Assembly: GCA_002917775.1 (NCBI GenBank)
Contig: KZ627158.1
Location: 530,578 to 594,577 of the forward strand
Length of the DNA: 64,000 nucleotides
DNA from: Glaciozyma antarctica PI12
Lineage: Eukaryota > Basidiomycota > Microbotryomycetes > Kriegeriales > Camptobasidiaceae
Reading direction: 5' to 3'
The position numbers were made by a program, and so were the translations under genes. Below, piece by piece: positions 7,868-62,247 of the stretch. A model generated the notes under the pieces. It worked only from the letters and a program-made list of their open reading frames with translations. It was not told the origin of the DNA and ran no database searches. Within the stretch, counting starts at the first letter, position 1. Each line of letters starts with the position of its first letter.

Positions 7868-8910
7868 CTACGCCTTCTCCTCAGCCATCTTCCTCGCCAA
7901 TTCGAGCTGCGAAAAATCGAGCATCAGTCCCTCGTCTCGCTGCCGTCAAAGCACGCGAGAGGGCTCACCTCGGACGCGTTGATGACACGGAGAGCTCCAG
8001 GGGCAGCCTATATGAAAGTCAGCAGTGGAGCGAGGGATAAGAAGGAGAGCGAGCGCACGACCTCGCCGGTGATAGCGCCCTTCGCAACCTCGTAGGCCTG
8101 TCCGAGCGCAGTCGTCGTCCTAATCCACTGCGTCGAAACGTACATTAGCCATGGATGGGAAAGTGGAACGGTATCTGGGAAGCACGCACGTAGCGAATCT
8201 GCGAACGAAATCAGCCTTCTCGTCCAGATATTCAACCGAGACGTGAACGCACCTCCGATGGAACGACCTGAATCACAGCAACGCGAGGATCATTGGGGGT
8301 TCCGTCGTGAACGCCATCACCGAGGTCGCCAACCCACTGCACAACTTCGCATTAGCTCTCGCTCCGAGGATCAACGAGGACCGCACGCACGGCCTTAATC
8401 GCAGGATTCCAGCAGTCCTTGACCCTGCTCGAAGCCGAATCAGCTCTATATCTCTCTGAAGACGCACGGAACTCACGTCTCGAGATCTGTGACAACCTGA
8501 GCGCTTCCAGCGACCGAGATCCAGTCGGTGGTGCTCTCGTCGCTGAACGCGAGGTTGACGTGAGGGTCCTTGGCGAGCGAGTCGAACTTTCCGGAATCCT
8601 TGTTGGCAATAAAGTTGAAGACGAGGGCCTTTTCGCACGCCTGAAAGCAAACGTCAGGATCCTCGATGAATCGAGCGAGTGCGAAGGACTAACAGGACTC
8701 ATGGCGCGAGAGTGGAGCTGTCCCGAGGCGTCGCGCGTCGTGAGCATGGCGACTGGGTGGAAGGGGGTTAGCTAGCGAGGCTGGGAAGCAGCTCGGAGAC
8801 TCACACTTCGACGCCGACATGATCTTGCGAACCTCCGCAAGCTTCTGGTCCGGAGAGGCGTCGCTGGACGCCTTGGCCGTGTAGGGATCTTTGGCGTGGG
8901 CGGTTGACAT
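7868..8910 (-). CDS. Bli-3-like pyridoxamine-oxidase-fold protein
   Basis: The gene runs from ATG 8910 to TAG 7868-7870 and is cut by many small introns. Joined exons read MSTAHAKDPYTAKASSDASP at the start. Then come AMLTTRDASGQLHSRAM, FNFIANKDSGKFDSLAKDP, VNLAFSDESTTDWISVAGSA, and a late WVGDLGDGVHDGTPNDPRV block. This order is that of the general-stress/Bli-3 branch of the FMN-binding split-barrel family (Neurospora blue-light-induced gene 3, bacterial GS26). The LTT.D..G.LHSRAM strand lines the flavin pocket in relatives. The substrate is unknown; a light or stress link is by analogy only. The C-terminus is short and charged (LELARKMAEEKA). Confidence 0.8.
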
Positions 8911-58152: not shown

Positions 58153-60233
58153 TCACTCTTGCTCCTTCAAAAAGTTGACGAGCGGTTCCGTCACGGTCAA
58201 GAAGTGCGCCTTTCCCTGAGGTTTCGCGCCCTTGGCGGCCCAGTAGATGATCGATTGGTCCGAGAGGACGTCGGCGCCGTAGAGGACCTGCGAGCGGAGC
58301 GTTAGTGCGTGTCTTCGGGCAAAGCGTGTTTTGAGGCGAAGGAAACGAACCTTGAGGATCTTGGGGAAGGTGGCCATGACCTTGGTGTTCTCGTACGCCC
58401 AGATTTGGATCGTGTTACTGTCGTTCCCAACCGCCATCAGCACACGCCGTTGACAACATTGAGAAACGAAAACTTACATCAACGCGACCTCGGTCGCAGG
58501 CTTCTGGCAGAACACCTCCAAGATGGGAGCGATACCCTACGCACATCACGCACTATCAGCGCACCGTAGCGAGAGAGAAGGAGGAGGGACGCACGGCAAT
58601 CTCCTTGACGATGAGGTCAACGACCTGCTCGGGCTTCTGTCCCATATCAAAGCTCGAGAGGAGTCCTTTCCACACGAGCGCGATGAAATCGGGCTCAGGG
58701 ATCGCAGCCGACTTGTGCTGCTGCTCCAAAAAGCCGAGGATCTGCGCATCGTTCATCAGCTCCGCCCTCGCTCTCACGAAAGAAGGAACACACATCATCC
58801 TCATCCGCCTCCTCCGCCACCAACTCCCTAAGCCTCGCGAACGTGACCTCCTTCGCTTGTCCGCTCTTCTGCTTCGTGTAAAAGTCTACGACGCCCGCGA
58901 GTCCAGCGGACTTGAAGTACGCCGCGAGTTCGGTGGGAGAAGCCTTGGAAGGGGGGAAGAAGGCCTCGAGGTTCGTGAGAGCTCCCTTGCGGAGGGAAGA
59001 GGAGAGGTGATCGAGAGATTCGGTGAGGAGGTAGGACTTGAGGAAGGTCGTTAGGAACGTGAGGGAGGTGCCTGAGGGGGTCGGAATGAGAGGTTAGCGG
59101 GTGGCGAGGAGGAGGAAGAGAAGTCTGAACGTACTGTCCTTGACGAGGTGGTCCTTGATCAGAGCGGTGAGAACGTTGGCGGAGGCGAGGCCGCCAGCGA
59201 CGAAGAGGGCGGACGAGACGGCAAGCTTCTCCTGGTCAACAGGGGAGAACTTGTTGGCGTGCTGAAGGACACCCCTGAGAGCAGTCTCCTCGAACGGCTT
59301 CTGGAGGTATTTGTACCTGCGCACACCGAACCCTGATCAGCTGCCTGGCCTCATTCCTCCCCCCCTCAAGCCGCATCGTCCTCCTTCCAGTGCGCCACCG
59401 AGGACTCACCGACGCATAAGCTTGTTGAAGACGTCGACAATCTTCTTGACGTCCGCGACCTCGACGGGCTCCTTGGCGGATCCAACGACTGAGAAGGTCG
59501 ACTTGGGAGTGCCATCCTCGAGGAAGCCTCCACCCGGCGCGAGGAGTCCACCGACGAGAAGGATCTCAAAGAGCTCCTGCTCGTACTTGCGGTAATCGAG
59601 CTGCAACCAGATCACATCGCATCAGCTCTCCGCCACCGTATTCGAAGTCGAGAGAACGCACCTGGTTGCCTAGCGCATCGAGCTTGCTGGCGACGGCATC
59701 GAAATCTCCCGGCGGGACCGACTCGAGGTGCTTGACGAGCTGATCCCGGAACGCCTGCGGCTCGTGCTTGGCGTTGGCCTTCTGGACTCCCTTCCTGCGA
59801 GAGAGAGAGACGAAGCAAGATCAGAGCTCGTTCAAGTCGGTTCCTCTCACTCGTCCCGAGCGCGATAGGGACGAACCTCTGCTTGTTTCCTGCGAGAAGT
59901 ACAGTACGTTAGCTGGATTCGTGCAGTAGGGTAGAGAACAGCGACTCACGAACGCCTTGGAGGATAGGTTTGACTTCTTTCTGTCCTGTGAGAGAGGGTC
60001 ATGGAAGGTCAGTCCGTGTCGAACGCGATCCCGTGCAACCTCTGCCACTCGTAGTAGAGCTCCAGCGTTACCGTACGGCGTTGCCACCTCGTATCGAGTG
60101 GCACACGACTGGGGAGATGAGATGGGAAAAGGACTTACCAGGAAGGGGGGGCGCCGGTGGGGTTGGGTCTGCAGGTAGCAGAGCGTGAGTGAGTTCACTG
60201 GTAGGATGAGCTCGTAGTGATTAACTTACACAT
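58153..60233 (-). CDS. eIF5-mimic protein (BZW/5MP), W2-domain protein
   Basis: The stop TGA is 58153-58155. Joined exons give KPILQGVRNKQRKGVQKANA, FRDQLVKHLESVPPGDFDAV, LDYRKYEQELFEILLVGGLL, APGG, MRRYKYLQKPFEETALRGVL, and a C-terminal W2 domain (IQIWAYENTKVMATFPKILK; VLYGADVLSDQSIIYWAAKG; FLKEQE). Human BZW1/2 show the same series (KPTLSG.R.KTRKR; LDYRRYAETLFDILVAGG; LSEE.ILKWY). 5MPs compete with eIF5 for eIF2 and eIF3, raise start-codon stringency and can affect Gcn4/ATF4-type control. The proposed first exon is only four bases (ATGT at 60233-60230), followed by a gtaagt intron 60169-60229. It is divergent from CPA1. Confidence 0.85.
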
Positions 60234-60712
60234 GCGCTGACTCTGATTCTTCTTGCTGTTGGAACTGTGGGCGGAGGAGGAGGGGAGCCTGGCTCAGTAC
60301 TAAGGACTTATCCAGATCGCTAAGTAAAAATTAAATGCATTTCGATTTATTTCTTTGACTCAACGGCTTGCGAGCCCTTCTTCCTTTGCTCCCCTCAACT
60401 CGAAAGACTTTGATTCGCGCAAGCTCACTTCGCTCAGCGTAGTGTCAACCCCTTCTTCACCCCATCTTCACCACCAAACAGTTGATGTACGTCCTTATCT
60501 CGCCCAATCCCATTCGAGTCAACGCGGAGGGAAGAGGAACCGAGTACAGAGCGGGGGACACAGCTGACACGCCCTGCCTTGGACACAGGAGATATCTACA
60601 CTCGGGCTCTCAAACTAGACAAGACTACCTTGACTACGCCATCACCAAACTCCTTTCCAAGGCTTAAAAGACCTCTTCCTCCCTACTCAACCGCCTAAAT
60701 CACCCGCACACG
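60234..60712. promoter_or_regulatory. divergent BZW/5MP-CPA1 promoter and CPA1 leader
   Basis: This carries an A/T-rich stretch near 60318-60356 followed by the CPA1 leader. Within the leader lies the attenuator uORF and an intron 60487-60588 (gtacgt donor, agctgacac branch, ggacacag acceptor). Confidence 0.6.
60485..60667 (+). CDS. arginine attenuator peptide uORF of CPA1
   Basis: A uORF ends 45 bases before the CPA1 ATG. Spliced out of 60487-60588, the bases AT (60485-60486) join G (60589) to make ATG. The product is 26 residues, starting MRYLHSGSQ and containing TRQDYLDY at residues 10-17; TAA is 60665-60667. Known attenuators (Neurospora arg-2, yeast CPA1) are 24-25 residues with a T-x-Q-D-Y-(L/I) core and stall ribosomes at their stop codon when arginine is high. 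The core, size and position all agree. The Trp present later in known peptides is absent here. If unspliced, an ATG exists at the same place and reads in frame into the same peptide tail, giving about 61 residues. The start has T at -3 (weak). Confidence 0.8.
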   Translation: MYVLISPNPIRVNAEGRGTEYRAGDTADTPCLGHRRYLHSGSQTRQDYLDYAITKLLSKA

Positions 60713-62247
60713 ATGCTCTCCCTATCCCGCACTCGCCTTGGTGCCTTCGCCCGCCCCGCCACGCGCACCTTCGCCACCATCGCCAACACTATCCCCTCGC
60801 CCAACCACGTCCCCACCGCGCAGGACCCCAACCGCCCAGCAACTCTTCACCTCAAGACCGGACAGTCCTTCACCGGCAAGGCGTTCGGTAGCCCCAACTC
60901 TCGCTTCGGCGAGAGCGTCTTCAGCACCTCGATCACTTCGTACACGGAGTCGATGACCGACCCCTCGTACCGCTCTCAAATCCTCGTCTTCACCACTCCC
61001 CTTATCGGCAACTATGGCGTCCCCGACAACAGCGCCGTCACCGAGCCCAACGGCCCTCCCGTCCTCCTCGAATCGAACGGCATCCAGTGCGCCGGAGTCG
61101 TCGTCGGTGATCTCGCCGAAAAGTACTCGCACTACCTCGCCGTCGAGTCCCTCCACGAATGGTGCGATCGCCACGGCGTCCCTGGAATCACCGGAGTCGA
61201 TACCCGCGCGATCACGACCCTCCTCCGCAACAACGGATCGACCCTCTCCAAGCTCGCCAGCGGAGACGGACACGAGGTCGTCCCGCTCGATAGTGAGTAC
61301 TGGGATCCCGCCAAGGAGAACCTCGTCGCGCAAGTCTCGACGCAGGAGGTCTACACGCTCAACCCCGATGGAGACGTCAAGATTGCCGTCCTCGATTTCG
61401 GCGCCAAGGCCAACATCCTTCGTTCGCTCGTCCGCCGGGGCGCGTCCGTCACCGTCTTCCCCTGGAACTTCGACTTCAACACCGTTCGGGACCAGTTCGA
61501 CGGCCTCTTCCTCACCAACGGCCCGGGCGACCCCAAGCACTGCATGGAGGCGGCGGTTCACCTTCGCAAGACGATGGACGAGTGGGAGAAGCCCATTTTC
61601 GGCATTTGCATGGGTCACCAAGTTATCGGCCTCGCGGCAGGACTCGACGCGTACCGGATGCGTTTCGGAAACCGTGGTCACAACCAGCCCGTTTTGGCGC
61701 TCGCGAGCTCGGGGAGCATCAAAGCTGGTCGCGTTTACGTGACATCTCAGAACCGTACGTTCTTTCCTCACTCTTTTCTCTGTGAGCTTGAGCTGACGCC
61801 TTTCTTCGCTCGCAGATCAGTACGCTCTTGAGCTCGTCGACCCCTTCCCCAAGGGCTGGGAGCCATTCTTCCTCAACGCCAAGTTCGTCCCCTCCTTTTT
61901 CGCCTCGTCGAACACGACTAACCTCCTTCCTCACAGCGACGCTTCCGTCGAAGGCATCAAGAGTACCGACGCCAGCGGCAAGCGCGTCTGGGGAGTCCAG
62001 GTACGTTCTCTCGTCCTCGTCGCCATCGCTCCTACTCACTCTTCTCGCACAGTTCCACCCCGAGAGCGCCGGAGGACCTCTCGACACGATCGGCATGTTT
62101 ACCTCGTTTGTCGACGAGTGCCGCTTCCTCAGCAAGGGTGCGTTATCCTCTCTCTTTCCCTGAGCGTCCTTGCTGACTTTCGTGCCGTTCGCAGCTGGTG
62201 GAGCTCCTGCGATTCTGTCGTCCAAGCACCCCGAGGCTCACCTTTGA
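60713..62247 (+). CDS. CPA1: carbamoyl-phosphate synthase, arginine-specific small subunit
   Basis: It starts at ATG 60713 (A at -3) and ends at TGA 62245-62247, with four introns in the last third. The first 25 or so residues (MLSLSRTRLGAFARPATRTF) form a mitochondrial presequence. The CPSase small-chain domain follows (LHLKTGQSFTGKAFG; VFSTSITSYTESMTDPSY; GITGVDTRAITTLLR). The class I glutamine amidotransferase then shows GLFLTNGPGDP, FGICMGHQVIGLA with the nucleophilic Cys, and FHPES with the catalytic His. It releases ammonia from glutamine for carbamoyl phosphate in arginine synthesis, working with the large subunit. Translation is likely set by the upstream attenuator uORF. In this window the ornithine carrier gene serves the same pathway, 49 kb away. 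Confidence 0.95.

What the first reader, a model, noticed from the sequence alone, without database searches (positions are those of the whole stretch)
60485..60667. Arginine attenuator uORF whose start codon is built by splicing
The CPA1 leader contains a short frame ending in TRQDYLDY...TAA, matching the core of fungal arginine attenuator peptides. An intron with consensus sites (gtacgt, gctgac branch, acag) starts right after AT and its removal makes AT|G, giving a 26-residue peptide, close to the 24-25 of known examples. Unspliced RNA would start at the same ATG but add about 35 residues. Splicing could thus decide whether a standard attenuator is made. Known: arg-2/CPA1 attenuators stall ribosomes when arginine is high. 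Inference: intron-gated attenuation.
Basis: partly seen in the sequence, partly recalled or inferred. Interest (0 to 1): 0.8.

Follow-up and report, generated by a model that had tools for sequence, protein, structure and literature searches.

The report
Arginine-sensing leader peptide, split start codon
In front of a basidiomycete yeast's arginine-synthesis gene CPA1 lies a tiny reading frame that looks like the known fungal arginine-sensing leader peptide; a normal-looking intron cuts through its start codon, but nothing yet shows that splicing is used as a switch.

Summary
The CPA1 leader has one upstream ATG (60485). An intron with this genome's usual signals (60487-60588, 102 nt) starts after AT; its removal restores AT|G and gives a 26-residue peptide, MRYLHSGSQTRQDYLDYAITKLLSKA. 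Unspliced RNA uses the same ATG and adds 34 residues ahead of the same last 25. The core T-x-Q-D-Y-L occurs once in six frames of the window and is expected about 5e-5 to 3e-4 times in such a leader. One Agaricus bisporus CPA1 model carries TRDDYLD ahead of its usual start. The uORF ATG has a weak context (T at -3), CPA1's has A at -3. This is very probably a basidiomycete arginine attenuator uORF. Likeness to ascomycete attenuators beyond the core is poor: Pfam PF08252 does not match and the Trp seven residues after the Asp is missing. 'Intron-gated attenuation' is not supported: both RNAs end in the same attenuator, attenuators can also act inside a coding sequence, and about 12.5% of candidate introns here are readable anyway. 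Constitutive splicing is likeliest. No RNA data and no relatives' DNA could be reached.

The parts
60356..60362 (.). TGACTCA, possible GCN4/CPC1-type site between the divergent promoters
   Evidence: 4 TGASTCA in the window against 9.38 expected, so not significant by itself
60485..60487 (+). uORF start codon in unspliced RNA (T at -3); after splicing it is AT (60485-60486) + G (60589)
   Evidence: only ATG between 60380 and 60712
60487..60588 (+). predicted intron, 102 nt, GTACGT...ACAG, no in-frame stop, multiple of 3
60564..60568 (+). CTGAC branch-site motif, 22 nt from A to the AG end
60589..60667 (+). second uORF exon with stop TAA 60665-60667; with AT it encodes the 26-residue peptide
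60614..60637 (+). attenuator core TRQDYLDY
   Evidence: QDYLDY-coding DNA is unique in the genome
60713..62247 (+). CPA1 main ORF, 436 aa, five exons (introns 61755-61815, 61883-61936, 62001-62052, 62138-62194); A at -3

Best explanation
The leader encodes a diverged basidiomycete arginine attenuator peptide. An ordinary leader intron cuts its start codon between T and G and is most likely removed constitutively. Scanning ribosomes meet the weak-context uORF ATG; some pass it and start at CPA1's better-context ATG, others translate the 26-residue peptide. When arginine is high the nascent peptide holds the ribosome at the uORF stop, 45 nt before the CPA1 ATG, blocks followers and may expose the mRNA to nonsense-mediated decay. 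Shown here: reading frames, AT|G junction, splice signals, core motif, ATG contexts, CPA1 identity. Inferred from other fungi: translation, arginine-dependent stalling, decay. Inferred without direct data: near-complete splicing and no gating role of the intron.
For: CPA1 identity. Core motif once in the window, 5e-5 to 3.4e-4 expected in the leader. TRxDYLD in 1 of 120 listed CPA1 homologues, P0073 of Agaricus bisporus, ahead of the usual Met. Weak uORF and better main ATG context, single uATG. Splice signals like CPA1's coding introns: GTACGT in 2 of 4, CTGAC in 2 of 4, ACAG in 2 of 4; strict triple 4 in the window against 0 in 20 Markov sequences. Cryptococcus CPA1 homologue: ribosome-occupied uORF, repressed main ORF, 5-fold up without UPF1 (PMC7049704, passage).
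Against: PF08252 does not match the peptide. A profile of the Neurospora and yeast peptides gives it 6.7 bits, reached by 102 of 20,000 shuffles; an unrelated small ORF of the window scores 7.6. Trp at +7 from the Asp is Thr. 119 of the 120 listed CPA1 homologues show no such motif in their first 130 residues, as expected if uORFs are normally not annotated, but no independent uORF was seen in another Microbotryomycete. No RNA evidence; start of transcription unknown.
Confidence: 0.72

Rival explanations
1. Intron-gated attenuation: splicing of the leader intron is regulated, perhaps with arginine, so that 26-aa and 60-aa forms are made in varying ratio and attenuate differently.
For: The intron is a multiple of 3 and free of stops in the uORF frame, so both forms can be translated. 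In Cryptococcus UTR introns are more often retained than coding ones, with 7% to 51% regulated by retention depending on threshold (PMC5006051, passage).
Against: Same start, last 25 residues and stop in both forms. Attenuators also act inside coding sequence (PMC3368165, passage). 13.0 of 104 candidate introns are readable in a given frame. Standard splice signals.
Confidence: 0.08
2. The intron is not used or hardly used; the working uORF is the 60-residue frame with the attenuator core near its C-terminus.
For: The frame is open throughout. About one in five loosely defined candidate introns in the window is chance (105 donors against 22.7 expected).
Against: The strict signal triple is not seen in 20 Markov sequences; spliced length 26 fits the 24 and 25 of the Neurospora and yeast peptides.
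Confidence: 0.08
3. The uORF is a decayed or repurposed attenuator that no longer responds to arginine, or is left out by a downstream transcription start.
For: Poor match outside the core: no PF08252 match, 6.7 bits, no Trp at +7. Transcription start unknown.
Against: The core with its Asp is intact, and TRxDYLD recurs ahead of an Agaricomycete CPA1; weak-context single uATG is kept.
Confidence: 0.12

Closest known systems
Fungal arginine attenuator peptide (AAP; arg-2/CPA1 leader peptide, Pfam PF08252, Neurospora peptide in PDB 2XL1)
   Same: uORF of the arginine-specific carbamoyl-phosphate synthase small-subunit gene; 24-26 residues; T-x-Q-D-Y-L/I core at the same distance from Met; single uATG with weak context.
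   Different: D follows L directly (DYLD) where ascomycetes have S-D; Trp at +7 absent; PF08252 does not match; start codon cut by a predicted intron.
Cryptococcus CPA1 attenuator uORF (CND01050 and its C. neoformans homologue; PMC7049704, passage; Hood et al. 2007 cited there, not held)
   Same: Basidiomycete CPA1 uORF; there with high ribosome occupancy and repressed main ORF.
   Different: Its peptide sequence and any intron in its uORF could not be seen here.
Toxoplasma ApiAT1 uORF (PMC8370653, passages)
   Same: Arginine-responsive uORF whose 33-aa peptide resembles AAP and needs a conserved Asp.
   Different: Other gene and lineage; that paper speaks of possible convergence.
Agaricus bisporus CPA1 gene model P0073
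   Same: TRDDYLD ahead of the usual CPA1 Met, against TRQDYLD here.
   Different: Annotated as part of the protein; its DNA was not seen, so uORF and introns there are inferred.

Membership tests
Fungal arginine attenuator peptide | uORF in the leader of arginine-specific CPSase small subunit (CPA1/arg-2) | tested here: met
Fungal arginine attenuator peptide | T-x-Q-D-Y-L/I core including the Asp | tested here: met
Fungal arginine attenuator peptide | match to Pfam PF08252 | tested here: not met
   0 families at E <= 10 for the 26-aa and 60-aa forms, while the Neurospora and yeast peptides score 56 and 58.8 bits
Fungal arginine attenuator peptide | Trp seven residues after the Asp (importance for stalling recalled, paper not held) | tested here: not met
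   Thr20 in the alignment
Fungal arginine attenuator peptide | about 24-25 residues | tested here: met
   26 if spliced, 60 if not
Fungal arginine attenuator peptide | arginine-dependent ribosome stalling at the uORF stop | not testable with these tools
   needs toeprinting or ribosome profiling
Fungal arginine attenuator peptide | peptide conserved in close relatives | tested here: inconclusive
Spliceosomal intron of this genome | donor, branch site and acceptor like those of proven coding introns | tested here: met
Spliceosomal intron of this genome | removed in mRNA | not testable with these tools
   no RNA reads on hand

The most novel reading that the evidence does not exclude
A two-input attenuator: retention of a readable intron in the start codon makes a 60-residue, N-extended attenuator instead of the 26-residue one, and the ratio, set by arginine or growth state, tunes how strongly CPA1 is attenuated or its mRNA decayed.
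Probability: 0.07. Interest if true: 0.75.

Novelty: new variant of a known kind. Interest (0 to 1): 0.38.

Why it matters
It would extend the arginine attenuator, a well studied regulatory peptide, to a lineage of basidiomycete yeasts with a clearly altered C-terminal half; if it works, it shows which residues of the ascomycete peptide are dispensable. The split start codon also offers a natural test of whether an added N-terminal stretch changes stalling. Whether introns in basidiomycete attenuator uORFs are already described could not be checked, because the main paper on their evolution is not held.

Tried and rejected
Pfam and PDB sequence searches with the peptide gave nothing. The protein database was searched three times: CPA1 (7,323 hits, best 120 listed), the 60-aa unspliced ORF (no candidate sharing three words) and residues 1-40 of P0073 (three Agaricus bisporus CPA1 proteins, only P0073 itself with the fused peptide). 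Scans of viral and prokaryote contigs with CPA1 gave no fungal locus (none; four bacterial or archaeal relatives, not used). Rfam found nothing in 60000-61000. The leader RNA 60440-60712 is not unusually structured (z -0.19). Other YAG ends in the intron, 60549 and 60563, are not followed by G and so would not restore the ATG; the non-YAG ends 60529 and 60536 would, but have no branch motif at a normal distance. TGACTCA fits the gene but is not significant alone.

Literature: Hood et al. 2007 (Fungal Genet Biol), the paper most likely to tell about introns in basidiomycete attenuator uORFs, is not held (one search tried a wrong DOI), nor is Spevak et al. 2010. Paper searches listed no title or abstract start about an intron in an attenuator uORF or a uORF start codon cut by an intron. 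Several lists were capped (e.g. 15 of 6,282, 15 of 487, 25 of 172), and the library holds open-licence papers only, so this is not proof of absence. Of papers I saw passages only: PMC7049704, PMC2075485, PMC8370653, PMC5006051, PMC9604717, PMC5487733, PMC3368165.

Full report
What is there. The window lies in a 20.0 Mb genome of 18 contigs. The gene at 60713-62247 (+) encodes the small subunit of carbamoyl-phosphate synthase (first exon: PF00988 at 7.4e-42, PF00117 at 3.1e-26). Named homologues near the top of the list are from Phenoliferia psychrophenolica, Microbotryum saponariae, Microbotryomycetes sp. JL221, Rhodotorula paludigena, Meredithblackwellia eburnea and Rhodotorula toruloides, 79-83% identical, so the organism is probably a Microbotryomycetes-like basidiomycete (inferred). 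A five-exon model gives 436 residues, chosen as the best-scoring of the tried splice combinations against P0014. PF00988 has one other locus in the genome, on contig C16.

The uORF. Between 60380 and 60712 there is one ATG, at 60485. Read through, it gives 60 residues to TAA 60665-60667. Without 60487-60588 it gives 26 residues, MRYLHSGSQTRQDYLDYAITKLLSKA. The uORF stop lies 45 nt before the CPA1 ATG. The uORF ATG has T at -3, the CPA1 ATG has A at -3.

Is the intron real? Its donor GTACGT is enriched in the window (40 against 11.0 expected, both strands), as is GTGCGT (69 against 27.1); GTAAGT is not (4 against 8.1). Of the four CPA1 coding introns two have GTACGT, two have CTGAC with 19-20 nt to the AG end, and two have ACAG. 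The leader intron has all three, with 22 nt. The strict triple occurs at 4 donors in the window on both strands and at none in 20 Markov sequences of window length. A looser motif occurs at 105 donors against 22.7 expected, so about one in five loose candidates is chance. At 102 nt it is longer than most candidates (median 59, 90th percentile 122.8, n = 104); leader and 3'UTR introns of Cryptococcus average 118.3 nt (PMC7049704, passage). Of three YAG ends in the intron (60549, 60563, 60588) only the last is followed by G and restores ATG. Of 8 candidate introns in the window with AT before the donor, 2 restore ATG on removal, this one and one at 8143 on the minus strand. All this is sequence evidence; no RNA evidence was available.

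Is it an attenuator? For: gene, place, length, core. T.QDY[LI] occurs once in six frames of 64 kb. DNA fitting CARGAYTAYYTNGAYTA occurs once in the genome, here. DNA fitting T.[QE]DYL (the pattern lets in DYF) occurs 9 times, both strands, with 6 for the reversed control: genome-wide the motif is at background, but in this 228-nt leader about 5e-5 would be expected; a Markov model fitted to the leader gives 3.4e-4. Of the 120 CPA1 homologues listed, one, P0073 of Agaricus bisporus, has MLFSKNTRDDYLDI before the usual methionine. This looks like a gene model that fused the uORF to the main ORF; the other A. bisporus entries start at the usual Met. My first pattern missed it; I saw it by eye and confirmed it. 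Against: PF08252 does not match, although it matches the Neurospora and yeast peptides at 56 and 58.8 bits. A profile of those two scores the window peptide at 6.7 bits, and 102 of 20,000 shuffles of it do as well or better, the best at 13.6. Among 471 small ATG-started ORFs of the window the unspliced form (4.7 bits) ranks third, after two nested minus-strand frames at 7.6 and 6.1. The Agaricus piece scores 3.1. The residue at +7 from the Asp is Thr, not Trp. So it probably works like an attenuator and is probably a diverged member, but it fails two sequence criteria drawn from the ascomycete family.

How it most likely works. In Cryptococcus the CPA1 homologue has an occupied attenuator uORF, low translation of the main ORF, and RNA that rises 5-fold without UPF1; that paper cites Hood et al. 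2007 for tests of the conserved uORFs in a Neurospora extract (PMC7049704, passage). The simplest reading here is the same chain: weak uORF start, partial leaky scanning, arginine-dependent arrest at the uORF stop, repression of CPA1. TGACTCA at 60356-60362 could add transcriptional control by a GCN4-type factor; this is inference.

Does splicing gate it? Start codon, last 25 residues and stop are the same in both RNAs. PMC3368165 (passage, citing Fang et al. 2004) states that the attenuator also slows elongation when inserted in a coding sequence, so a 34-residue N-terminal extension need not switch it off. Readability of the intron is not remarkable: 28 of 104 candidates are multiples of 3, and on average 13.0 of 104 are stop-free in a given frame. 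In Cryptococcus 31.8% of coding introns are in frame and 80.1% of those hold a stop (PMC5006051, passage). The same passage says UTR introns are retained more often, so gating is not excluded; I give it 0.07 to 0.08.

What could not be done. The key paper is not held. Of the nine genome sites, five were inspected for their open frame, the CPA1 one included; the other four inspected lie in longer frames or in frames without a Met; four were not inspected.

Noticed in passing
58156-59621, minus strand: The divergent neighbour is an eIF5-mimic (5MP/BZW-like) gene: 5MP1/2 HEAT domain in three of five segments and a W2 domain in a fourth. It is a translation factor relative sharing the intergenic region with a uORF-controlled gene; probably coincidence.
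   Followed up: partly
whole window: Introns here prefer GTGCGT and GTACGT donors and not GTAAGT.
   Followed up: partly
8143, minus strand: Another candidate intron (136 nt, GTACGT donor) that follows AT and whose removal gives ATG at the junction; an ATG lies just upstream, so it may be inside a coding frame.
   Followed up: no
60356-60362: TGACTCA between the divergent genes, a possible GCN4/CPC1-type site.
   Followed up: partly
P0073 (Agaricus bisporus, protein residues 1-14): A CPA1 gene model that seems to have swallowed its attenuator uORF as an N-terminal extension.
   Followed up: partly
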